A stretch of 64,000 nt of DNA from Erythrobasidium yunnanense (lineage: Eukaryota; Basidiomycota; Cystobasidiomycetes; Erythrobasidiales; Erythrobasidiaceae), in contig BCJC01000001.1 of the NCBI GenBank assembly GCA_001600175.1, positions 4,263,652-4,327,651 on the forward strand, written 5' to 3'. Shown piece by piece: positions 29,390 through 46,540 of the stretch (position 1 is the first letter of the stretch; every line of letters begins with the position of its first letter). The translations under genes and the position numbers were made by a program. Below the pieces are notes generated by a model that saw only the letters and a program-made list of their open reading frames with translations, made no database searches and had not been told where the DNA came from.

Positions 29390-30607
29390 TCATGCTGACA
29401 CACCCAAAGTCCGCTTGACAAAGTCGTACATACTCTTCATATCGTTCTTTTCATCTCTATCAAAGAGATGGTCTGCGCCTTCGACGACATCATAGACGAC
29501 TTCCAAGTTCTTGGCCTTCATCGCATTGACCACATCGTCCGCTTGGACTATGGGCACTTTGTCATCGATAGTGCCGTGTGTGATGTATGTGGGTGGCGTG
29601 TAGCATTTGCCGTCCTTGATGGCTTTTGCGACTGTGAACTCGGATGGATCTAGCTTCGTGCCGTCCAGAAGGAGGTTCTCCAGGATGGCTCTGCGAGACA
29701 TACTTCAGTAAGAGCATTGGACGAAACTGATAGCACTCACTCCTGGATCATGTAATGGTAGAACATGCTTCTTGGGTGTTCGAGCGGTGTCGCGTCAGAG
29801 ATGGGTTGGGAGGGATCCAGGAACTCCGTCAATTCCTCCTCCTTGATCACTCTAGGCATGTATGACACGGGATGTTGCTTGGTGTGCCAGAAGGGGTCAT
29901 TCAAATCGGAGATGGGGTAGATGGCTGCGATTGAGGTAGGAGGAGCAGGCTTCTGAATGCCACATGCTTCGAATCCAATGCCCATGCCAGTAAGAAGGGC
30001 GAGCCAACCGCCTGCGAACGACAGAGTTAGAATAGCTCGTTGTCACAAGCGAAGGGTCACTCACCTGCACTTCCGCCGCTAATGCAGATCCGCGAAGCGT
30101 CGACCCTTCCTTCAGTCGCCTTCTCGAACTCGTCGGATCGCAAGAAGCGCATAACGTTCGCACAGTCGAGCAAGATGCCTGGCAGCCGTACTTGGGGAGC
30201 CAGTCTGTAGTCTGGCGAGACTACACAGACTCCATGCTTCTCTGGCGCCGACTTCCAGTGATGCGGGTAGCCTGAATGGTATACTCAGCAAACAAAGCAC
30301 CCTTGAGAATGGTAAGTCTGCTCACCTTTGCGCGTGCCCTGTCGTCATGCCGGTGATGCGAGTTAGATGGGATGTTTCGAAGTCGATGTGAGTCCCGCTC
30401 TTCTCACCTGCAGAAGACCACCTCCATGCTAACACCAAGGAAATCTGGAGTCAATACGAGTAACAGCTCCTCCAGCAAGCGAGTGTCGAGGCGTACAAAC
30501 CAAAGATAGATGGGCGCCTTGTTCTCCTTCGTAGCGGACTCCGGAATAATGTATTCGAGATGTACATCCAGGCCGTCAATAGTCTCGTACTTGAGGGTGG
30601 TAGCCAT
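29390..30607 (-). CDS. alpha/beta hydrolase (HGGG-type esterase/lipase fold)
   Basis: Model: complement(29390..29690, 29741..30011, 30065..30271, 30326..30338, 30408..30428, 30497..30607), 307 codons. A 21-nt exon encodes exactly HGGGLLQ, the oxyanion-hole motif. A 13-nt exon follows, then PHHWKSAPEKHGVCVVSPDY and RLAPQVRLPGILLDC. The nucleophile Ser is in ISGGSAGG (about residue 114), the acid is likely in THGTIDDKVP and the His in EGADHLF. This matches the hormone-sensitive-lipase-like alpha/beta-hydrolase-3 group. No signal peptide, so probably cytosolic. Substrate unknown; carboxylesters or lactones are typical. Confidence 0.88.
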
Positions 30608-31391: not shown

Positions 31392-34300
31392 ATGGTCAAC
31401 CTGTTCAAGGGCAAAACCAGCAAGGACAAGCGGAACGACAGTCAGGATCCAGCTGTCAACGCTGCTGCGCTAGAAGACGTCGGCGCTGTCTCTGCCCAGA
31501 CTAGTCAAAGTGATACTCAACAGCATCAGCAAGCGCAACAAGTCATCGACATGATGGTTCGCAAGCATCACGAGAGACATCCCCACTCGAAGGATCTCGA
31601 TCAAGAGATTTCGTCAATTCCTTACGGGATGCCCGATAGCAACACCGAGCAGGGTGTACAAGAGGTTGAGGACGACGACGATGGCATGTTCAAATTCGCA
31701 CCTCCCCAATCTGGCGAGATCGACCAACAGTCGGCGACAGAACCACTTCAACCTCTCCCTTCCACTCCTCCTTCTGGAGTTTCAGCTTCGCATCTGCAGC
31801 AGCACGGCGACAACGTCTACCCTCCCTACTCCGTTCCTTCATCAGCTCTAGATCCACACGCTCACATCGATGCGAGTGCTCCCGACGATGGACTTTCGCC
31901 CGCTGCTCGGTATGCCCAGCAGGTACAAAGCAACAGGCCGACCACGGCGATATCTACCAAGAGCGGCTTAGGCAAACGAAGGCAAACCTTCGTCTATCCA
32001 GGCTCGCCTATCTACACGACTGCCGGCGGCGGATATCAGCAGCACTACAATCGCCAGGAACACCTCAACGAGCATGATCTTCCCATGGCACAGCGCGAGG
32101 GTACACCCGTCATCGGCATGGCAGACGGCTCTGGCTTTCCTGTGTCAGTACAAGGTACACCCAGGTCTGCCTTCTTGCCGGAGTACAAATCGCAGCTGGA
32201 CGACGGCGAGGATGGGTATAGCCAGAGAACAGGGGCCAGCTCATTCATGACAAAGGCGCGTTCAAGATCGCTCAAAGCTGGTAAAGGAAGTGGAGGAATG
32301 GCGATTGTACAAGAATGGGATGGGCAGGACTCGCCTGACCTGTACAAGCTCAACGAGTATGCCATGCAGGACCTTAATCGAGATGGAGGGTACACAACTG
32401 CTATTCCAACGAGTCGTGGAGGAGAAAGCAACACATCGCCAAGTATTGGATACACAGCAAGTCGCAGACCCATGACAGCAGCTCTCAGCAGTCGAGGCGC
32501 GACTGCAATCTCCGCCATAGACGGCGACAAGCACTCGATATCAGGCTACGACCTCTATGAAGGTGTAGATGAAGACTCTCCCTTCCCAGAAGTCAGGGCA
32601 AGCGTTTCGAATATCGATGATCCAGAAATGCCAGTCCTCACTTTCCGCTCTTGGTTCTTGGGCATATTCTTCCTCATACTGGGCGGATGCCTCAACTTCT
32701 TCTTCAACATTCGCTTTCCATCTCCCCTCATCTCGCCGGTCACGGTACAGCTGCTGTCTTATCCTTTCGGAAAGCTGCTGAGCTATACACTGCCTACAAA
32801 GTCCGTCAAGACGCCTGCTTTCCTGCGGTGCATCGGCTTCCCAGAGGAACTATCACTCAACCCTGGTCCATTTAACATCAAAGAGCATACAATCGTGGTC
32901 ATGATTGCCAACGTTACTCTTTCACCTCCTTACGCCCTGAACCTCACATTAGTTTTGGACAGGTTCTACAAGCAGCCGAAAGGGATTGGCTTCGACTTCT
33001 TAATCGTTATCTCCACTCAGATCATCGGCTTCTCCTTTGCTGGCCTTTGTCGAAGATACCTCGTATGGCCAGGTAGCATGGTCTGGCCGCAGAATCTGGT
33101 CACTTGTACACTTTTCAACACCTTTCACGCTGAAGACGATGATGGATCCGACGGATCGCTTACTCGCTTCCGCTACTTCACATACGTTATTATAGCTGGC
33201 TTCCTATGGTTCCTGCTGCCAGGTGAGCGATGACATCTTGCTCGTTCTGTTGGGCCTGCAAACTCACCTGTGACTGTTTCCAGGCTACCTCTTCACCGGT
33301 CTCAGCGTCTTCTCCTATATCTGCTGGATCCTCCCAAGGCAGAAAGTCGTCAATCAGCTCTTCGGTATCTCTACTGGCTTAGGCATGTCTGGCATCACGT
33401 TCGACTGGGCGCAGATCGCATATACTGGCTCCCCACTTGTAGTGCCTTGGTTCGCTGCAGTCAACATATTCGCTGGCTTCTGCATCATTTACTGGGTTAT
33501 CGTGCCGGCGCTCTACTATAGCAATGTGAGTTTCTTCCTCTCCGTACAGATTCTGACGAAAGGAGCTAAGATATGCAATGTAGGTATGGAACTTCGCGTA
33601 CATGCCCATCAGCGTTTCAGGGAACTTCGATCGGTTCGGCCAATACTACAACGTTTCGATGGTCACGAATGACGATATGAGCTTCAACCAAGAAAAGTAC
33701 GAAGCCTACTCGCCTCTATTCATGTCTACGACCTATGCGATTGTCTATGGTATCTCTTTCTGCTTGGCGACAGCGTCTATCATGCATGTGCTACTGTACA
33801 GCGGGAAAGACATATACCAGAAATTCAGAAAGACGACAGCAGAAGATGAGGACGTCCACATGAAACTGATGCGAAACTACCCAGAAGTCGCAGACTGGTG
33901 GTACTGGTTGGTCTTCCTGGTCTGCACTGTCTTGGCGATCATCGCTGTTGAGGTGAGCCTAGACAGCATCGTGCCGGACATCTGCTGATTTGAGAATGAC
34001 CTTGAACAGGTATATGACACTGGGCTCACTGTATGGGCTCTCTTTCTGGCGATTCTGGTACCTGCAGTGTACATACTTCCCGGAGGCTACATATTCGCAA
34101 TAACAGCCCAGATTGTAAGTGGTCAACCCAGGGCCCGCTTTCCAACTGCACATACATGCTAAAAGGATCATGCACAGCTCACGGTCAATTTAGTGTCAGA
34201 AGTCATCCCCGGTTATGCACTGCCAGGTCGTCCTGTCGCAAACATGGTATGAAAAGGCTCTCGAGGCTGCCGAGTATGTGACTAACTCCCTACTATGCCA

Positions 34301-35311
34301 GCTTTTCAAGGCGTTCAGTGTGCAAGGTCTACAGTCTGGCTTGTACTTCGTGCAGGATTTGAAGCTCGGGCACTACATGAAGATACCGCCAAGGGCCAGC
34401 TTCATAGGTAAGCCAAAGCGCTGAAGATGAGTACGGATAGCTGCTGACAGATTTATGCACAGCACAAATAGTCGGAATCACCATCTCATGCTTTGTGCAA
34501 GTCGGCATGAAAAGGGCGATGGAATCTCTGGTTCCGGATCTGTGTGCTGACGACCAGCACGCTCTACTGGTTTGCCCGATATCGCACGTTGCCTTCGAAG
34601 CATCCGTTATCTGGTCAGTCTAACATTATACCTTGCGCAAAATTGCGATCCTGACGCATTTACAGGGGACTGATCGGTCCAGAGCGATTCTTTGGACATG
34701 GCTCACCTTATCGGCCCTTACTCTATCTACTGCTCTTGGGAGTTGTACTACCGATACCTTTCTTCTTCATGGCAAGGAAGCGGCCGGAAAGCTGGGTTAG
34801 ACACATCAACATTCCAGTCATGCTCAACGGCGCGACCTGGATACCCCCGGCTACTGGAATCAATTACTCTTCCTGGTTTCTCGTCAGTGCCGTCTTCCGT
34901 AAGTCTGCTTACTGGCAAACAGTATCGAGCGTTGTTAGCTGAGATCTTTCCTTCGTGTCAGAGTTCTGGCTGCGACGGAGGCGCTTCCGATGGTGGTCGA
35001 AGTTCAACTTCGTAACCTCCTGTGCCCTGGAAGCGGGTACGATCCTTTCTGCTCTGTTCATCTTCTTTGCTTTGCAATTGCCTCGAGAGGGGACTATCGA
35101 ACTGTGAGTCCAGGCTAGAAGCGATTCTACGCTCCATTGACAGGTACGCTTAGCAAATGGTGGGGAAACGAGGTATACAAGCGGACGGCCGACTGGGTGG
35201 GGGTTCCGTACAGAGGTGAGAGGATTGACTATCCACAAGAGTCCCCTCTGCTAATGATGCATGGCTCTAGACACTCCTGAAGCGGGTTTCGGTCCGGAAT
35301 CCTGGTATTGA
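31392..35311 (+). CDS. oligopeptide transporter, OPT family (copy 1)
   Basis: Model: 31392..33222, 33284..33525, 33584..33952, 34010..34114, 34178..34246, 34302..34407, 34463..34613, 34666..34898, 34962..35103, 35154..35215, 35271..35311 (1116 codons). OPT proteins import tetra/pentapeptides or related small compounds with protons. About 400 cytosolic, Ser/Gln-rich residues precede SPFPEVRASVSNIDDPEMP, then many membrane helices with the family blocks SLNPGPFNIKEH and GLCRRYLVWP. Others are NTFHAEDDDGSDGS, FDWAQIAYTGSP, the GNFDRFGQYYNV region and VFGHGSP-like FGHGSPYR. It faces the repeat-peptide gene and a second OPT copy. Intron positions match the second copy closely. Confidence 0.93.
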
Positions 35312-36816
35312 TACATGTAGAGTAGCTCCGATCATAACTTGTATTACCAGTGCTGAGAGTATGCAGTCCAAGCAGCCTTTGCTCGATCACTTGCTTGTAG
35401 ACCCGTAGCATCAAATAATGCTGTAGAGTACGACGCAGCACAGAAACTAGTCTCACTATCGATTTCTTGCTTTACCTTCATCCTCCTTCGAAAGCCAGAG
35501 CTCCTGCGGATCGCTTATATGATGCGCATTTATCGCAGCAAGAATCTCGTGGCTGCTCGCTACTCAGCAACACCTTGCTCGTCAGTCACTGCCGAAGCGA
35601 GCCTTCAGGCGCGATCCAGCTGGACATGGCCTGCATCACTTTGGCTCCGGAAAATCAGATCATATATCAGCTTTCTGCTTGATCGCTTCAGCCTCAATCT
35701 GTACACATCTCTTGCAGGACCTCTTCTCTGGCATCTCTGCTAAGGAAACGCATCCATTACAACCGACCCGAGGTGATCGCACGGACCTCAAAGGTGATGT
35801 TGCAGCCATTGTTGAAGACGGGCACCATACATGTTCGAATGGGAAGGTCCTCCACGTCCTGATACGAATGGCGACGGCTCAGGCGAGCGCAGTGCGAGTG
35901 CTACCAGGCTCTGGTTCTCCTGCTGTTCGGGCTTTGCAACACACGGCAAAATAACGGGGGCGTTCAAGTCACCCAAGAGTAATATTGCCGAGCACATCAT
36001 CAGCATCCATGGCCTGAAGGAGACACCTCGCATGCATCATTGTCATGGTGCCAATGCTCCTTACAGACTTTTTTATTACCCGACCTGGTGTCCTGGCGGC
36101 CGCAGCACATTGTCCCAATCCGAATTTGATGCACTGACGCACCGACCATAGGACTGCCCTCAAGGCCAGGTTGGCTGTGCGATGAACGCTGAAATGCAAT
36201 CTCAATTTCAGGTCTAGCTTTCTGATGACGCAAGCAATTTGAACGCTGCAGAGGGTCCGGAACATCCCGACAGCCAGACCCTGTAAATGAGCTGAGCAAG
36301 GGTGTCAGCTTGAGCATCAGCTCCTCGAAACGTGCGGTCTAGGCCGGACGTATAAGTATCGTTTGTATAGCTTGAATAGCTGCCAAAGGCGCTCTGGCCA
36401 GCTCAAAGATGTCAAAGACTAAAGGCAGAAGCTTGGGCTCGGGGCTCGAAGCGAAACAAAGACAAGCTTGAGGTTGAGGTTCGGGCACTGATTTTCGGGC
36501 TTTCAAGAAAGAGCATTCCACGATAAAGATAAGGCACAGCAACGCGCATCTGTTAAATCAGCTTCCGAAGCACGCGTCGTCCCACGCGATCGAACATCCC
36601 GTGACGTTTATTGCCTCAAAAGTAATTGATTGCTGGCAAACCTTGTGCATTCTGTGTGGCGGAAAAATGCAGAAAAGAGCTTGAGCAGAGGAGAGCCGTG
36701 CCGTGAGGCTGCTGGGTAAAACGCACTAAGAGGTTGGGCTGCCCTTTCGTTCCTTAGCTATCAGTCACTACACATTCCTAAAAACCACAGCTCGTTACGA
36801 CCACTTCTTACGACTC
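35312..36816. other. 1.5-kb region with no recognised gene
   Basis: Many short overlapping frames on both strands, none with a domain, signal or sensible splice partner. The end nearest the repeat-peptide gene (about 36700-36816) should be its promoter and 5' UTR and is rich in CT-type tracts before the ATG. It is the longest gene-free stretch in the window. Confidence 0.45.
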
Positions 36817-37596
36817 ATGAAGCTCACTATTGTCACCGTGTTGGCTCTCGCAGCCGCTGCATTTGCAGCTCCAGTCATCGAGGCGAGTCCCTTTCCTTTT
36901 CCGGCACCATAGTCGACCGCATATGGAGACTGACCAGCAAACTGTAAACAGGAGCGACAAGAGGTCAACAACGGTACCGCACCTGTTAGAGGTGGATGGG
37001 GCAAGGGCTCCGGCCTCAAGGAACGTCAAGAAGTCGGCTCTGGCTCTGCGCCCGTCAGAGGTGGATGGGGCAAAGGCTCTGGCTTGAAAGAACGACAGGA
37101 CACAAGTAACGGTACCGCACCAATCAGAGGTGGATGGGGCAAGGGCTCCGGCCTGAAGGAACGTCAGGAAATCGGCTCTGGCTCTGCGCCTGTCAGAGGC
37201 GGCTGGGGCAAGGGCTCCGGCCTGAAGGANNNNNNNNNNNNNNNNNNNNNNNNNNNNNNNNNNNNNNNNNNNNNNNNNNNNNNNNNNNNNNNNNNNNNNN
37301 NNNNNNNNNNNNNNNNNNNNNNNNNNNNNNNNNNNNNNNNNNNNNNNNNNNNNNNNNNNNNNNNNNNNNNNNNNNNNNNNNNNNNNNNNNNNNNNNNNNN
37401 NNNNNNNNNNNNNNNNNNNNNNNNNNNNNNNNNNNNNNNNNNNNNNNNNGGCTCTGGCTCTGCGCCCGTCAGAGGCGGCTGGGGCAAGGGCTCCGGCCTG
37501 AAGGAACGTCAGGAAGTCGGCTCTGGCTCTGCGCCCGTCAGAGGAGGCTGGGGCAAAGGTTCGGGCTTGAAAGAGCGAGCTATCGATCTGGATTAG
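36817..37596 (+). CDS. secreted tandem-repeat peptide precursor (assembly gap inside)
   Basis: Model: 36817..36882, 36952..37596. A clean signal peptide (MKLTIVTVLALAAAAFAAPV) is followed by a protein built only of 23-residue units of the type RQEVGSGSAP-VRGGWGKGSGLKE, ending in RAIDLD. Six units are visible and the 220-N gap is exactly the size of three more plus 13 bp, giving nine. The intron is GC-AG (GCGAGT donor, CTGAC branch-like site) and splits the signal region from the repeats. Units 1 and 3 vary at the start (NNGT, SNGT: N-glycosylation sites) where the others have GSGS. The repeated Trp/Gly core between basic residues resembles fungal repeat precursors that are cut into many short peptides, but no KR/RR Kex2 site is present. 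Function unknown. Confidence 0.8.
36955..37575 (+). repeat. 69-bp tandem repeat array, about nine copies
   Basis: The span is exactly 9 x 69 bp if the gap length is right. Later copies are nearly identical at the DNA level, copies 1 and 3 are the most divergent. This pattern suggests recent duplication or gene conversion among the later units. Confidence 0.85.
37230..37449. other. assembly gap (220 N)
   Basis: A run of N inside the tandem repeat. The break lies within one unit and resumes 13 bp into a later one, and 220 = 13 + 3 x 69, so the estimate was probably repeat-aware. Copy number in the genome is not fixed by this sequence. Confidence 0.99.
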
Positions 37597-37954
37597 ACGT
37601 AAGTGTCCTATCAAAAGTGTCAAACGCCGGCTCAATGTCCCTTCATCCTGCAGTCCTACTCTTCTATCAACTGAAGTACCCAGCTCGATGCTGCCTACTA
37701 TGCAGCAGTCGGTCAAGCGCCTTCCCTTCACGATCTTTACGCTACCATGTCAAATTGACGACATAACGGGAATTTTACCGCCATAGAATCTCACCAATAT
37801 ACCTATCACGCTACTAATATACAGGTGTCTATTCATGTACAAGTCTCTATCTGTACATTCCATACTGCCATCTACCAGATCGATCGCCCAAAGCCTTGCT
37901 CTGGCCTGCTCAATTGACATCAGTACAATACAATAAAAAGGCGCATCCTGCGAC
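37597..37954. other. convergent 3' intergenic region
   Basis: About 360 bp between the stops of the repeat-peptide gene (+) and OPT2 (-). AT-rich, with AATAAA-like CAATAAAAAG near 37930 on the plus strand. It should hold both polyadenylation regions. No gene seen. Confidence 0.4.
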
Positions 37955-40900
37955 TCACGGCGCTAAATACGTTACACCTTCCGCGTCCAATGTCTGAGTA
38001 AAGACCTTGTTTCCCCACCAGTCTATCGACAGTGACCCGCTCCTAGGTAATTGTAGGAGTAAGAAGACAAGCACTACGCCAATGACAGTACCAGTGTCCA
38101 TTGCTGCCGAGGTGACGAAGTTATACTTCGCCCACCAACGGAAGCGATACCGTCGGAGTACGAATTCTGCTCGAGATTGTTAGTCATGGGCCAACAAAAG
38201 AGTGTATTGGCATAATAGCCTACGGAAGATGAAGCCAACGGCAGCCCAGGATGAATAATTGATGCCCGATGCTGGCGGTATGAGGACCATGGCCGAGAGC
38301 ATCACCGGGAAATTGACATACTTCAGAAACTTCCACTGTAAGCGTTTCTCTAGGAAATATGCCGGAAGCGGAACCAGCGCTCCAGCGAGAAAGCCAAACA
38401 GCAGCGTTCGATAGGGGGAACCGACTCCGAATAAGCGGATAGGTCCGACAGCACCCCTGAAGAGTCCGCTTCAGCATATGCACAAAGCCTATTGCAAGGA
38501 ACTCCCACCATATGATCGCTGCGTTGAAATGCGTTCGCGCAAACGGGCAGGTGAGTCCTGACGCTTGATCTGGCGCACAAAAGTCGGGTACGGCAGCGTT
38601 TAGACCTTCGATCATTGCAGCTTGTATGAAGGCGGCAAGCACCACAGCTAGTATCTGGACTGCGGGTGCTCTCCTGTCAGATGTGAGGCCACCTTGTGAT
38701 GATTGCTCCCTTACTTGCGAACGTGGTGCGGGGTGGTACTTTCATATAATGACCTAGTTTCAGATCCTGTACGAAATAGAGACCGTTTTGAAGGGGCTGA
38801 GCACTAAATACTTTAAAGATCTGTCATCACAATTCAGCACTAGAAAGACATTTCTCCAGCGAGATTGCTCACTAAGCTGGCGATAGGCTTTCCCGGTAAG
38901 ATGTAGCCGATAACGAGCTCCGATATGACATTGATCGAGGTCTGCGAGAGTTTCAGTACAACGGAGGCGAATGAGAGGGGTTGGGTCGTACCTGCTGATT
39001 GGCCAGCGCATATATAAAGCCCGCCGGGACTAGATAGACAGCTGGAAGTACCAAAGAAAGCAGGACTCCCCATAATGGGAGTTCAGTGTTGTAGGCCTGT
39101 AGACGATGTTGAGACGGGCAGTCTACGGAGCCACGGTTACGTACCTCAACCAGTGCAATAGACATCGCAGCAAAGGCAGTGAGAGTGGCTGCATACCACC
39201 ATGTAGGAACCTCGGCATATGCAAGCATGAGCTTAGCATGTATGTCGGTTTGGGCTGACTTTATATTGCGAGCCGTTCTGAGCATTGTAGGACCGTAATA
39301 CAAGGCGGTATGCGTCAGAAGTGCAGTTGTTAGAGCGAAGCATATGGTGTACGCCATGATGTAGGTAGTAGGGAAGAAGAGGGGCGAGTATTCCTTGTAA
39401 GCACTCGCATCGACCAGAGCATCGGGTCCGAGAATGCGCGATACGTTGTACTCGGCGCCATAGCGATCGAACACCCCGTTGACCGATATGGGCATGTAGG
39501 CGCTATCCCATGTCTGATTGTAAAGTCAGTACGTTTGCCAGACTCGCAAGGGGATGGCCTTACATTGGTATAATATAATAAGGGCACAATCACCCAATAT
39601 ATACCGACAAACCCAACGAGGATGTTGGCGATAGCCCACCATGGCACAATGAGGGGTGATCCGATATATGATATTTGAGCCCAATCGAAGGTCAGGCACC
39701 CCATACCCAAACCAGACATAACTCCAAATAGTTGATTGACCACTACAGATTCTGTAATCATGTTGCGTGAGTGTGATTCCAGCTATACAGGGTAACGCTG
39801 TTCTTACTCGGCCGGATCCAGCAGAGCCAGGAGAAGGCAGACAAGCCAATAAACAGGAATCCTGGATGGATGTAAGCACAGTCGCAGCCTAACGATGACT
39901 TACGCACCAGGTACGAAATACCAGACCGCAGCCGCGGCAAAGAGGTATAGGAAGTATCGATAGCGCGTGAGGGATCCGTCGGATCCATCATCATCATCCG
40001 CGTGGAAGGTGTTCAGCAATGTGCACGTAACAAGCGTTTGCGGCCATATCAGCATTGCAGGCCAGACTAAAAATCGCCGGCAGAGTCCAGCGAAAGAAAA
40101 GCCTATCGCCTGAGTTGCGAGCAGGAGCAGGATGTCGAATCCGTATGTTGTTTCCACTTCGAAATGCTTTTTGATGGCTACTACTGCGTTGACTGCAATT
40201 GCTGGAGCTATACCCACATTTGCCATGATGATGATGACAGTATGTTCCTTGATATTGAAAGGTCCAGGATTGAGCGACCATTCGGAGGGGAACCCTAGGC
40301 GCCTCAGGACTTTTGGGAACCGGAAGTCACGCACAGGCAAGAACCTGGCCATCATTATGCCAAAAGGGTATGAGATCACCTGTACCACCATCGGAGTAAC
40401 AGTAGGTGAGGGATACCGAAGTTGGAAGTAGGTATTGAGAGCCGCTCCGAGGACCGTGAAAATGATGCCCAAAGAGAGCGCCCGGAAAGTAAGACAGGGA
40501 ATATCTGGATCGTCGAAATTGCTGACGCTCGCTCTGACTTCTGCAAATGGAGAGTCTTCTTCGTCACCGGGTAGGCGATCGCCATGCCCGTCAAGAAAGT
40601 CCATCTGGTCGGCCATTTTGAGCAGTTCTTCCGGGTCCATATTTGCGTAAGGGTCCGATTCTTTCTGTTGGCTTTTCTTGCTCGTGATTGTACTACAAGA
40701 AGCATTCTTAGCACGGTAAGCCAGTCAGCACCCAGGAACTCACTCGGCTTCAGTCTTTCCCGTGTCCGGGCTACTCGTCTCTGAGTCCATATGTTCTTCC
40801 CTCTCGGCAGCATAGCGCATATGCTCTGCTAGTTCTATGACTGGTGTCCCAAGCGAGCGACGATTCGTAGCTGCTGTTTGAGGAATCGGTCTGCCGTCAC

Positions 40901-41297
40901 GATATGCGGCTGCTAAGGCAGCGGCTGCAGATAGCGGTTGGTTCAAGTCGAGTGCTGACTCCTCTGGTATAGCCATAGATGTCAATGGGCGGCCTCGTAT
41001 CCCAGTTCCCGGCGGAAGCTGGTCGTAAGAGATGCCGATGCCCGTATTGAGGCGAGATCCAGCAAAGTAGCTTGAAGCGCCAGCTCGGGACCCGGGTCTG
41101 TCGAAGCTGAAGAGTCCAGTATCTCTGTCGTCCATTATTGAGCTCTGCTGCGTCGCAGCCGTCGGCGGCGGATCTTGTCTGCCTGTCTCTTGCATTTCGA
41201 CATCTTCGTCCGTCAACGAGGTCACCGGCGAAGGGAGAGGCAGCTTGAAGCCCTGCGAGTCGGCCGTTGTAGGCTTGCTCTGTATTTGGTCCGCCAT
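37955..41297 (-). CDS. oligopeptide transporter, OPT family (copy 2)
   Basis: Model: complement(37955..38166, 38224..38456, 38509..38659, 38715..38820, 38873..38941, 38992..39096, 39145..39513, 39564..39751, 39808..39861, 39908..40692, 40744..41297), 941 codons. Same family blocks as copy 1: DSPFAEVRASVSNFDDPDIP, SLNPGPFNIKEH, GLCRRFLVWP, NTFHADDDDGSDGS, FDWAQISYIGSP and PASGINYSSW. The cytosolic N-terminus is shorter and unrelated in sequence. Six consecutive exons have exactly the same lengths as in copy 1 (369, 105, 69, 106, 151, 233 nt), and exons of 54 and 188 nt sum to the 242-nt exon of copy 1. Proton-coupled peptide import is the expected role. Confidence 0.93.
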
Positions 41298-42063: not shown

Positions 42064-45000
42064 CTATGGCTTACGCGCCCCTCTCAGACCTTTGATAGGC
42101 CGGCGTCCCTTATTCGGGCTGGTAGGCTCATCGCCTACGATACCAGCATTGAAGAGAGAGGCTCCAGGTATACCAGTGCCTCCAGGCGTGGTTGAGCCTC
42201 CGAATCCATTCGCTGGTGCAGCATTGAATGTAAAGCCGCCCGATGCTGCCGGTGCTCCTCCAAAGCTAAAGGCAGGCGTAGAAGCGCCAGTATTGCTGCC
42301 AGCTCCAAAGCTGAAGGGAGGCTGACTCTGGGTGTTTGACTGAGTGGCACCGCTGCCGAAAGTGAAAGCAGGCGAGGAAGGCACAGCGTTGGCGCTATTC
42401 CCACCAAAGTTGAAGGCAGTATTGGCAGACGGCGAGGGCGTCCCGCTGCCAAAGGTGAAAGCAGGCTTAGGTGCAGAGTTCTGAGGTGCTGCACCGAAAG
42501 CAGGTGCTGCTGCAGCTCCAAAGGGAATTACCGGTGCCGCGCTGCTTGCACTAGCCCCGAAAGCCGTGCTGGTGCCAGCTGAGGAAGTCGGTTGTGCCGA
42601 CGTACCACTGCCACCAAAGTTGAATGCTGGTGCTGAGGTAGCGGCAGGGCTAGAAACTCCGAAAGAGAAAGTTGGAGCGGCGGAAGTAGAGCTGGAAGGC
42701 AGACTGGGCGTAGGCTGAGGTGACCCAAAAGTAAAAGCTGGCTTGCTTGTCTCAGCAGGTGCAGCTGTGCTTGATGAGCCGAACGAAAAGCCTTTGGATG
42801 CAGGCGCGATCACAGGCGAGAATGGTCCTGCGGTCGCGGCAGCGGGTTTGTTTGTAGGCGGGCTCTGTTGCATTGCCTCGGGAGAAGCACAAGATGATGC
42901 TGTCGGCTGGTTGTTGGTGGTAGCAATCAGTCTCGCTGGCGTGTCGGAGACACCTGCATTCGCTGCGGGCTTGAAGCTAAAGCCAGAGAAGGACGGCTTG
43001 CTCACAGGCTGCATGTCTCCGTTTACTGCACTTTCAGCAGGTTTTCCGAAGGTGAACGCGGGAGAAGACGCCGCTTTGTCTGAACCAGCCGTAGCCTGTG
43101 ATTCTGTATTGAAAGAGAAAGCAGGCGCTTTGGGTTGCGTGTCGGAAGAAGCGGTAGATCCAGCTTGTGCAGTGGATGGGAAGGCGGCGAAAGGGTTGGT
43201 AAACGCTGCTGAGCTGGTAGCTGTAGGAGTCTCGGCAGCAGGCTTTGGCGCACCAAATGAGAAGGGCGCAGGTTTGGGCTGGAACAGTAAGTCAGCTTAT
43301 GCAGCTGGCATGTATAGGTAGAAGGACTTTACCTTATCATCTACAGAAGAAGGCGATTGACTGGCTTTCTCCGCGCCTTGGGCTTCAGAAGGCTTGGAGC
43401 TGAAACTGAAAGTGGGAGCAGGGCTCGTCACAGCAGCTATTTCGGTGGGATTTGCAGCTTCGGATGCAGCTGGCGCTGTAGTTCCAGCGATTGGAGGAGG
43501 GGTTGGGTTGGCGGAGGGTGCAAAAGAGAAAGGGGATGTAGGCTTGGCCATTGTACCTGTACCACTGCCTGTTGATCGTGATGTAGGGTTGAATGTAAAG
43601 GTGGGCGTGGTGGCTGCTGCAAGCGGCGTGCTCTGAGATGCACTAGAGGGAACTTCCAATGATGGCGCCTTGAAGCTGAACATGGGCTTCGCAGCGGGCT
43701 GCACCGGTACATGCTCCTCAGTACTTTGAGTGATGGTGCCTAAGGTCGAACTAGTACTTGCAGCGGAAGTGGCTACCGGCGGAAGCTCCTGCTCATCAAG
43801 TACAGATGTTGAGCGGGACCGCGCAGCCAGCACTGGCGATTGAGGTGTTTTACCGAAGCTGAAGCGATTTGTGAATATAGAGTTCGGTAACTTCAGCTTG
43901 GCCATCTCGAGCTTTTCAGGCCGCGAGATATATCCGTCATTATCGACAGATGTCGGCTCTTCCGTAGGCGGTACCTCATCGTCTTCGTCCACATCGCTTG
44001 TCGCGAAGGACATGAGCTTCCTCCGTGATGCTGGTCTGGAGGATGCCTCTCCTGCCTCCTCGGCCTTAGAGTCGTCAGACTTGCTCTTTCCAGTCTTCGA
44101 TTTGCCAGCTCCAGACATAACCTGATCAATGCTTGCAGACGGCTCGCGCCGATTTGCGGATTTTTCTGTGACAGGTGAAGTCGGCCGCTTTTCCTTCTGC
44201 TTCCTGGAAGCCGCAGCAGGCGGTGGTGATGCAGGCCCAGGAGATCGCAATCTCCGCCCAGAGCGTGTCTTGACACCCTCGTCAGCGCTCTCCTGTTCTT
44301 CCTGATCGTCCGCAGAATCGTTATCTCCGACCCTGGTCTCTTTGCCGGACTTCGTAGCCTTCTTAGCTTTCTTCGTCGGTCGCTCAGGTTCAGGCGCTTT
44401 TGCACTCTTCGGTGCCCTAGTCTGCCCAGGACGCCGTTTAGAAGATGGCTGAACCTCGTCGACTTCCGACTCCTGCGCTTTACCCTTGCCTTTATGTCTG
44501 GTAGACCGCCTCGGTGAGAAGGCTCGGGTATCTTCCTGCATGTCGGAAGCATCGCTCATAACGCTAAGTTCACGGGTTCTCTGCCTTGTCCTGCGACGGG
44601 GAGGCTGCGGCAAGTCCGCCAGATGTTCCTCTGCTTCGCCAACCTGATCATCCGCTTCCTGATCCTCTCGCTCATCTCCGCCTCGGCTTCCATTCTGGTT
44701 CGCTGTGCTAGTCATCAACCTGTCGATCTCGTCATCGTCTGCCTCCTGACGCCTTCTGCGATTCTCCCGTTCCACCTCGGCCAGCCGCATGCGCTCGCCA
44801 ATTCCACCTTGGCTCCTGATCTTATCGCGCTGACTGGTAGTTTGCTCTTCCGCAGCCAGCTGACGGCGGGCGTATGGCGATATAGCATGGCTGGTCAAAG
44901 CTGGAACAGACCGCGACGCCGTGATCTGGGTCGCGAAGATGGAGTCGTTGGCAGGTGTTGAAATGGCAGGCAAGGGTACGTTGATGCGTTTCGGGCTCTG

Positions 45001-46540
45001 TATATTGGTCGATGTATGAGTATTGGCCCTTTACTTCAGATACAAGCCAGAGGAAGCATACCTTGTTCCGAAGGGTATCCAATTGCGGCCGTCTGATGCT
45101 CTCAAGTCGCTCAAGTATCCGTTCAGCTTCATTTTTAGGCAGACTCGACTGCGCAGGTTCTTGCTTAATCGGATTGCCGTGCTCATCGCCAGCTACAAAG
45201 CCCTTCGCCGGATCCCAAACGACTGATGTCTTTTGGCGCTTTGCTCTGTGGTAGCCATCAGATCCAGCAAAGTCTGTACTTGTGGGCGAGGGAATATTAT
45301 AGCGGGAGAAGGAGAAGTTTGAACGGGCTGGGGAGATTTTCGGAGGTGATGTCGACATTGCTGCGTGAGAACGCTTGTTCCCGGACAGGCCGTTGGCCAT
45401 AAAGAATGAGAAAGGTATACTTCCGGGCCTTCCAACTTGCGAAGCAACTGAAGGCGACCGCTGATATGGGTATAGCCTGTCTCCTAGTCGCGCCTGTTGC
45501 TGTTGTATAGCCAAACGCTCTAGCGGTACTGAAGGGGATCGAGCAAGGCCAGAAGATATATTGAGGGCGACCACAGGTAGTTCAGGCGAACGGCCTATCC
45601 GGAAGGGCGATTGCGACTGCAAGCCAAAGGTAGAGGACGAAGCGGACGCAGGCGCAGCCATCGCTGTCTGGCTGTCTGCGCCTGGTGACGCAGACCGCAT
45701 CGATGCTGAAGCAGGAAGATTCGCTGACAGTGCTAGTGGTGGAGGTCGGCCAGCAAAGATGGAGGTCTTCGACCGTGACAAGCCTGATCCGAAACCATTC
45801 GGCTGCGAAGGGGAAGTATTCCGAACAGGACTGCGATGCCTCGAAGTAGCGTAAGAAGGTCCAGCTGATGCACGCGCCAAGCTCGAGGGAACGCTTGCTG
45901 TTGTAGGCAGGTTGAGCGTCGAGTGCGATGAACGGATTCGCTTGGGTGACACTATCTCTTCATTATCATCTCCCTGATATTGGTTATACGCAAGCGAGCC
46001 CGATGCTACTGAAGGTGAAGCAGCATAGGTTCGCTTGACTGGAGGAGGAGGTAAGGCCATAGATGCGGGTCTCGTAAGTTTGTCTATTGTCCTGCTCGAG
46101 CTGGTATGGTTCGCATGGCCTGTCTCCTCGTCTCCGCGACTTTCGCTATCTGCATCATCGTCGAGATTTGGGATTGGCCGTCCTACGAGCCAGCCCAAAC
46201 TTTTCCGTGCGAGTCTACCTAGCAGACTAGGTGTATCTGCTGCTCCTACTGCGCCCATGAGCGACCTACGCCTGTCCTTCTTGCTCGCTGCAGGTGCCGG
46301 GGTGTGCGCATCTCGGCCGCCTTCGAGATTTGCCAGTGTGCTGCTAGAGACATCGCGACGCAAGTTGGGATGGCTTGAAGCTACTGTCGCTGGCGGTTGG
46401 CGGGCGTAAGGGGAGTCTGCTGCATTGATAGCGCTACCAGTTCGTCCAAAGATTGTGGTGGATCCAGCAGGCGTCGCAGCAGCACCACGCCGCGTCCGAC
46501 GAGAAGGCCCAGCTAGGGAAGGTGTAGAAGGTGTCTCCAT
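42064..46540 (-). CDS. FG-repeat nucleoporin (Nup1/Nup60/Nup124-like)
   Basis: Model: complement(42064..43278, 43333..44997, 45062..46540), 1452 codons with introns of 54 and 64 nt in phase. It builds the nuclear-basket side of the pore and binds transport receptors through FG repeats. The N-terminus has a likely membrane-binding amphipathic helix (SLLGRLARKSLGWLVGR, near residues 100-116). The middle has Ser/Arg-rich and acidic/basic patches with KR-rich, NLS-like segments. From about residue 950 onward many FxFG-type repeats occur (PAFTFGS, NFGG, FSFG). The C-terminus is basic (GRRPIKGLRGARKP). The assignment to one yeast Nup is uncertain because FG regions align poorly. Confidence 0.85.

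What the first reader, a model, noticed from the sequence alone, without database searches (positions are those of the whole stretch)
36817..37596. Repeat-built secreted peptide gene between two facing OPT transporters
A signal peptide followed only by about nine 23-residue units (Trp/Gly core GGWGKGSGL between basic residues) looks like a precursor releasing many copies of one short peptide. Its two nearest genes are both oligopeptide transporters, one on each side and pointing at it. A secreted peptide with matching import systems would be a signalling, nutrient-recycling or RiPP-like arrangement that I do not know to be described. The link is by position only. Against it: no KR/RR Kex2 site is visible and no modifying enzyme is adjacent.
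Basis: partly seen in the sequence, partly recalled or inferred. Interest (0 to 1): 0.85.

Follow-up and report, generated by a model that had tools for sequence, protein, structure and literature searches.

The report
Multi-copy peptide gene between peptide importers
In a basidiomycete fungus, a gene for a secreted protein built from about nine near-identical short units sits between two peptide-importer genes, which resembles a known fungal system in which a secreted peptide is taken back into the cell as a signal, and offers a second place to test that idea.

Summary
Window 36817-37596 (+) encodes a signal peptide, a 69-bp GC-AG intron and nine 69-bp units in register; a 220-bp N run hides three units and parts of two. 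The nearest genes found are OPT transporters, both pointing at it: OPT-A (31392-35311, +; gap 1505 bp) and OPT-B (41297-37872, -; gap 275 bp). They are two of four OPT loci found in the 20.9-Mb genome and each other's closest relatives among them (46% identity). The unit core is under strong purifying selection (pN 0.027, pS 0.578).

First, the genome holds a second secreted repeat gene (contig C3) with a similar unit but KKR/KR Kex2 sites, so the window's K-E-R junctions are probably altered cleavage sites. Second, Cryptococcus neoformans offers a functional precedent: Qsp1, a secreted peptide that acts after import through Opt1, is encoded by CNAG_03012, beside OPT1 (CNAG_03013).

Best reading: a multi-copy Qsp1/Opt1-like peptide-and-importer unit. 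Release of peptides is likely; import through these OPTs is inferred from position and precedent. No relative of the locus was found elsewhere (no fungal collection was available), so conservation is untested.

The parts
36817..36882 (+). exon 1 of the repeat gene: signal peptide (MKLTIVTVLALAAAAFA, likely cut before APVIE)
   Evidence: hydrophobic score; cut point judged by eye
36883..36951 (+). phase-0 intron, GC-AG type, 69 bp, CTGAC branch-like site
   Evidence: inferred from frame and from the match of exon 2 (ERQEV) to the unit; no RNA evidence
36952..37596 (+). exon 2: ER + nine 23-residue units (commonest QEVGSGSAPVRGGWGKGSGLKER) + AIDLD stop
37230..37449 (.). 220-bp run of N inside the array, covering units 5-7 and parts of 4 and 8
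31392..35311 (+). OPT-A, oligopeptide transporter with about 390 residues before the OPT domain; in-frame model of 1070 aa when the stop is fixed at 35311
   Evidence: several splice sites are approximate, and the unforced model ended earlier, at 34942
37872..41297 (-). OPT-B, oligopeptide transporter with about 220 residues before the OPT domain
   Evidence: start codon is one of several candidates; the last intron (37958-37906) was placed by hand, without it the stop is at 37955
35312..36816 (.). 1505-bp region upstream of the repeat gene with no convincing coding gene
37597..37871 (.). 275-bp gap between the converging stop codons of the repeat gene and OPT-B

Best explanation
The gene encodes a secreted multi-copy peptide precursor. 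It enters the secretory pathway by its signal peptide and is cut after the R of each K-E-R|Q junction, by Kex2 acting on a single basic residue or by a secreted subtilisin, giving about nine peptides of up to 23 residues, most with an N-terminal Q that can cyclise to pyroglutamate; a further cut at PVR|GG would give a GGWGKGSGL-type fragment of 9-12 residues. The released peptide builds up outside and is taken back into the same or neighbouring cells by OPT-A and/or OPT-B, where it acts as a population signal, as Qsp1 does after import by Opt1 in C. neoformans. Shown: signal peptide, unit array, selection on the unit, the flanking OPT pair, and a similar gene with Kex2 sites. Inferred: cleavage, release, import, signalling.
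For: Core columns 10-23 of the four fully visible units (of nine): pS 0.578 against pN 0.027; 13 of these 14 residues invariant while codons differ. Own-genome search with the first four units returned one other locus, on C3 (E 0.03 and 0.63): a signal peptide, a phase-0 intron just after it, and W-G-x3-G-x-K-x-R units with junctions WKR, KKR, KKR, KER, KKR and AKR. Unit similarity was reached in 4 of 3000 full and 9 of 3000 internal shuffles. The DNA pattern for WG-x3-G-x-K-[EK]-R, written after both genes were seen, has 9 exact matches in the genome, 5 in the window gene and 4 in the C3 gene, against 1 for the reversed control. Kex2 (S8 + P domain) and a secreted cerevisin-type S8 protease are present. 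Apparent cutting after single R, and N-terminal pyro-Q, are reported for Coprinopsis KEPs expressed in Pichia (PMC9769878, section 6). Two of the four OPT loci found flank the gene. Qsp1/Opt1 precedent with adjacent genes.
Against: No dibasic site in the visible part of the window gene. The C3 gene has no OPT gene near it among those found (OPT loci on C1, C2, C5), so the peptide family does not need a linked importer. The reverse search with the C3 protein did not return the window gene even at E 10, so kinship of the two genes is moderate. No 8-mer is shared by all three 800-bp upstream regions. The Cryptococcus neighbour by locus tag (CNAG_03014, dolichyldiphosphatase) has no PAP2 counterpart near this locus, so orthology of the two loci is unsupported. 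OPTs also serve nutrition, and a 23-mer may exceed their usual substrate size (recalled). No relative was found in 2 genome contigs and 5 viral-contig scans, collections of prokaryotes and viruses.
Confidence: 0.42

Rival explanations
1. A secreted multi-copy peptide precursor (KEP-like) whose peptides act outside the cell (antimicrobial, host-directed, surface-active or mating-related). The OPT pair is an old tandem duplication for nutrient peptides that happens to flank it.
For: Same precursor evidence; the C3 gene is not OPT-linked; peptide permeases including Opt1 and Opt2 orthologues are discussed as nutrient transporters in the basidiomycete yeast Papiliotrema terrestris (PMC10960036, passages); KEP functions are largely unknown (PMC9769878, abstract).
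Against: Being the only gene between the only close OPT pair found in the genome is unlikely for a random gene (of the order of 1 in several thousand by a rough estimate that no call computed; post hoc), and the Cryptococcus peptide-import system has the same linkage.
Confidence: 0.33
2. An intact secreted or wall-associated repeat protein that is never cut; the repeats give a structural or glycan-binding property.
For: No KR/RR site; glycine-rich units; NGT glycosylation sequons in two of the four fully visible units.
Against: No known domain or repeat family hit and, by eye, no GPI-like tail; the C3 gene has Kex2 sites at the same place in the unit; R-Q at five of six visible junctions.
Confidence: 0.15
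3. An ascomycete-type alpha-factor pheromone precursor (the W-x4-G spacing recalls WCxxxGQ).
For: Repeat precursor with signal peptide, and Kex2 sites in the C3 gene; spacing (pheromone motif recalled).
Against: No STE2 receptor match (which had no positive control); IMPDH scores 771 bits against PDB chain 4af0 and 700 against the next fungal chains (their organisms, Cryptococcus and an ascomycete yeast, are recalled); a 5.8S-like fragment carries a basidiomycete-type signature (signature recalled).
Confidence: 0.04
4. The repeats are an assembly or composition artefact rather than a gene.
For: An N run inside the array.
Against: Almost only silent variation in the core, open frame on both sides of the gap, a second gene with the same design.
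Confidence: 0.02

Closest known systems
Qsp1/Opt1 peptide quorum-sensing system of Cryptococcus neoformans (CNAG_03012, CNAG_03013, Pqp1 CNAG_00150, Liv3, Cqs2)
   Same: Secreted peptide precursor gene next to an OPT gene in a basidiomycete; this genome also has a secreted S8 protease and three WOPR loci. C. neoformans Opt1 is long too: a nonsense change at residue 932 is reported, and OPT-A is about 1070 aa.
   Different: Nine-unit precursor here, against a precursor yielding an 11-residue peptide there; two flanking OPTs here, while only OPT1 is named as adjacent in the passages seen; no peptide sequence relation established; CNAG_03014 counterpart not near.
Kex2-processed repeat proteins (KEPs)
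   Same: Signal peptide plus three or more tandem units of at least 8 residues; the C3 gene also has KR sites at 5 of 6 junctions.
   Different: The window gene has K-E-R, not KR/KK/RK/RR, so the survey rule (PMC7329392, section 13) would miss it; an OPT pair flanks it.
Ustilago maydis Rep1, Candida albicans candidalysin precursor, dikaritin RiPPs
   Same: Repeat precursors cut into several peptides (PMC9769878, passages).
   Different: No dibasic sites; no DUF3328 hit in the frames scanned; no sequence comparison with them was made here.

Membership tests
Qsp1/Opt1-type imported peptide signal | secreted precursor with signal peptide | tested here: met
   (hydrophobic start; no dedicated signal-peptide predictor was available)
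Qsp1/Opt1-type imported peptide signal | precursor gene adjacent to an OPT gene | tested here: met
   Cryptococcus adjacency
Qsp1/Opt1-type imported peptide signal | sequence homology of the peptide to Qsp1 | not tested
   the C. neoformans precursor is not held; no clear match by eye to the mature peptide
Qsp1/Opt1-type imported peptide signal | conserved gene order around the pair (CNAG_03014 dolichyldiphosphatase) | tested here: not met
   four PAP2 matches, on C7, C6, C1:2.84 Mb and (below the cut-off) C2; none near C1:4.30 Mb
Qsp1/Opt1-type imported peptide signal | secreted serine protease (Pqp1) that matures the peptide | tested here: inconclusive
   one cerevisin-type S8 with I9 prodomain at C2:1.418 Mb; orthology to Pqp1 not tested
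Qsp1/Opt1-type imported peptide signal | WOPR transcription factor downstream | tested here: inconclusive
   six matches at three WOPR loci; a family common in fungi (recalled)
Qsp1/Opt1-type imported peptide signal | import of the peptide by the OPT and action inside the cell | not testable with these tools
   needs uptake assays
KEP | signal peptide and at least 3 tandem repeats of at least 8 residues | tested here: met
KEP | KR, KK, RK or RR between repeats | tested here: not met
   window gene: all 5 visible unit ends are KER. C3 gene: met at 5 of 6 junctions (the survey's repeat-scoring step was not run)
KEP | release of unit peptides by Kex2 | not testable with these tools
   Kex2 gene present; apparent cutting after single R reported for other KEPs in Pichia
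Dikaritin/UstY-type RiPP | DUF3328 or other modifying enzyme nearby | tested here: not met
   no such hit in 23 of 33 window reading frames of 200 aa or more; short exons not scanned
OPT family, ISP4-type | OPT profile above curated cut-off | tested here: met
   OPT-A TIGR00727 529.4 bits, cut-off 438.7; OPT-B PF03169 178 bits in one exon, cut-off 25.8; OPT-B was not scanned with TIGR00727
Ascomycete alpha pheromone | STE2 receptor in the genome | tested here: inconclusive
   no match, but no positive control rang

The most novel reading that the evidence does not exclude
A second, independent or anciently shared fungal peptide-import signalling unit: a nine-copy precursor with non-dibasic (KER|Q) junctions flanked by two diverged dedicated OPT importers, so that linkage of peptide gene and importer is a recurrent basidiomycete design that dibasic-site surveys overlook.
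Probability: 0.35. Interest if true: 0.85.

Novelty: new variant of a known kind. Interest (0 to 1): 0.62.

Why it matters
The Qsp1 system was called by its discoverers the first peptide-based quorum-sensing system described in a eukaryote (PMC7537855, introduction). A second locus with the same logic in another basidiomycete would show that gene linkage of signal and importer can be used to find such systems, and would give a repeat-rich precursor whose peptides are easy to look for by mass spectrometry. It also suggests that KEP surveys restricted to dibasic sites miss precursors whose sister genes have ordinary Kex2 sites.

Tried and rejected
Relatives in other genomes: 5 viral-contig scans and 2 genome-contig scans found none; these collections are viral and prokaryotic, so this says little.

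Synteny with C. neoformans: tested through CNAG_03014 (dolichyldiphosphatase) and the annotated tyrosinase CNAG_03009. PAP2 genes are not near; no tyrosinase match was found, without a positive control. No support for orthologous neighbourhoods.

Shared promoter motifs: no 8-, 9- or 10-mer common to the 800-bp upstream regions of OPT-A, the repeat gene and OPT-B (the OPT-B start is uncertain). Dropped.

A peptide gene beside the other OPT loci: models with a hydrophobic start around the C2 and C5 OPTs showed no short repeat precursor (one 9.9-kb stretch each, best 12 models listed).

Reverse search: the C3 protein did not return the window gene; told as evidence against.

Taxonomy: full rDNA was not returned from the assembly (one 5.8S-like fragment). 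IMPDH points to Basidiomycota; the class remains open. The IMPDH model is mine and its N-terminal part is doubtful.

Solved structures: no PDB relative for the OPT-A first exon. No structure prediction was run; I judged the repeat protein probably disordered.

Literature: 9 paper searches (the lists of 17, 74 and 102 were cut at 20 rows). No listed row announced a fungal peptide gene and OPT as a linked unit; the Cryptococcus adjacency was pieced together from passages. The two original Qsp1 papers I looked up are not held and were not read. No paper was read whole.

Full report
Observation. It starts at 36817 with a 22-codon exon encoding a signal peptide. A 69-bp intron follows, with GC at its 5' end, a CTGAC branch-like site and AG at its 3' end; it joins PVIE to ERQEV so that the frame runs into the first unit. 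Exon 2 (36952-37596) holds nine 23-codon units and a short tail, AIDLD. A 220-bp run of N (37230-37449) hides units 5 to 7 and parts of 4 and 8; matching positions on its two sides are exactly four periods apart, so nine is the assembly's count. Units 1 to 4 alternate between an NGT and a GSGS spacer, which gives the 138-bp period; units 8 and 9 are both of the GSGS type.

Selection. Between the four fully visible units (1, 2, 3, 9), the core columns 10-23 differ at 58% of synonymous sites and 2.7% of non-synonymous sites, while the spacer columns 2-9 differ at 73% and 27%. The thirteen residues RGGWGKGSGLKER are invariant in these four units. The array has thus changed at silent sites while each copy kept its core sequence. 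This is what a multi-copy peptide precursor or a sequence-dependent repeat should show, and not what a fresh tandem amplification should show.

Neighbours. OPT-A runs 31392-35311 on the plus strand (1070 aa when the stop is fixed there) and OPT-B 41297-37872 on the minus strand; both point at the repeat gene, at 1505 and 275 bp (358 bp if OPT-B's last intron is not real). Two overlapping ORFs of about 105 aa in the upstream gap have no coding signal and no Pfam hit. The genome search for PF03169 gave 20 exon-level matches at four loci (counts are lower bounds): these two, one on C2 and one on C5. OPT-A and OPT-B share 46% identity over 634 residues, either is about 29% identical to the C5 gene, and the C2 gene is remote. 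The flanking pair is thus the only close OPT pair found in the assembly, and the duplication is not recent. The gene models are mine (a small dynamic-programming splicer) and approximate at several splice sites.

A second gene with Kex2 sites. Searching the genome with the first four units returned only one other locus, on C3 (E 0.03 and 0.63). It encodes a signal peptide, has a phase-0 intron just behind it, and carries units such as QDVPEDTEGKWGLARGFKKR. Its junctions read WKR, KKR, KKR, KER, KKR, AKR. A residue-shuffling test reached the observed unit similarity in 4 of 3000 full and 9 of 3000 internal shuffles. A DNA pattern for WG-x3-G-x-K-[EK]-R, written after seeing both genes, has nine exact matches in 20.9 Mb, five in the window gene and four in the C3 gene; the reversed control pattern had one, and 4 Mb of simulated sequence had none. 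Against this, the reverse search with the C3 protein did not recover the window gene, so the sequence case for kinship is moderate; shared design strengthens it. The C3 gene has the sites and unit length of a KEP by the published rule (the rule's repeat-scoring step was not run); the window gene fails that rule on its K-E-R junctions.

Processing. The genome encodes a Kex2 (S8 plus P domain, C7) and a secreted cerevisin-type S8 with an I9 prodomain (C2); the other two S8 loci found look like tripeptidyl-peptidase II (the last name recalled). In the study of Coprinopsis cinerea KEPs expressed in Pichia, several products appeared to come from cutting after single arginines, and some had N-terminal Q as pyroglutamate (PMC9769878, section 6). 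In the window gene, Q follows the R at five of six visible junctions (EER|Q, four KER|Q, one KER|A). Cutting at K-E-R|Q is therefore plausible but not shown.

Precedent. In C. neoformans, Qsp1 is secreted as a pro-peptide, matured outside by Pqp1 and needs the oligopeptide transporter Opt1; the authors infer that it acts inside the cell after import (PMC7537855, abstract, introduction and passages). Qsp1 is CNAG_03012 (PMC6687208, passage) and OPT1 is CNAG_03013 (PMC8092252, passages). They are neighbours on chromosome 3: a construct was placed in the intergenic region between them (PMC2848560, passage), and one inversion affects both (PMC3618354, passage). So the combination 'secreted peptide gene beside its OPT importer' exists in one well-studied basidiomycete. 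In the rows listed by my nine paper searches none announced this linkage as a unit or reported it elsewhere.

What kind of fungus. IMPDH from this genome scores 771 bits against PDB chain 4af0 (Cryptococcus, recalled) and 700 against the next fungal chains. A 5.8S-like fragment has a basidiomycete-type signature (recalled), and no STE2 receptor was found (no positive control). I place it in Basidiomycota; the modest IMPDH margin makes me think it is not close to Cryptococcus, but that is a judgement without a calibrated comparison. The class is unknown.

Against the favoured reading. The C3 gene has no OPT near it among those found; promoter regions of the three window genes share no 8-mer; the Cryptococcus neighbour CNAG_03014 (dolichyldiphosphatase) has no counterpart near this locus; OPTs also serve nutrition; no other fungal genome could be searched. 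Import and signalling rest on position and precedent alone.

Verdict. I give about 0.8 that the gene is a secreted multi-copy peptide precursor, and 0.42 that the flanking OPTs import its peptide as a signal. It is a new variant of a known kind: Qsp1/Opt1 logic with a KEP-like, non-dibasic, nine-copy precursor and two importers.

Noticed in passing
   Followed up: yes
window 37230-37449: The N run lies inside the repeat array, is exactly in register and is the only N run in the window.
   Followed up: partly
L048:1501-1625 (G000:C1:4391638-4391762, -): A lone partial 5.8S rRNA-like sequence (model positions 40-154), about 64 kb beyond the window and close to what looks like an HSP70 gene (recalled); no full 5.8S match was returned from the assembly.
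   Followed up: partly
window 36958-37233: Units 1-4 alternate between a type with an N-glycosylation sequon (NNGT, SNGT) and a type without it (GSGS); units 8 and 9 are both GSGS.
   Followed up: no
window 42064-46540 (-): Long protein model with many FSF/FTF/FGS-type repeats, looks like an FG nucleoporin; no Pfam hit in its large reading frames.
   Followed up: no
window 29390-30607 (-): Alpha/beta hydrolase model (BD-FAE, Peptidase_S9 and Abhydrolase_3 hits) upstream of OPT-A; possible peptidase or esterase.
   Followed up: partly
G000:C1:2794513-2798227 and about 2801.5-2802.3 kb (-): Two neighbouring genes that look like tripeptidyl-peptidase II.
   Followed up: no
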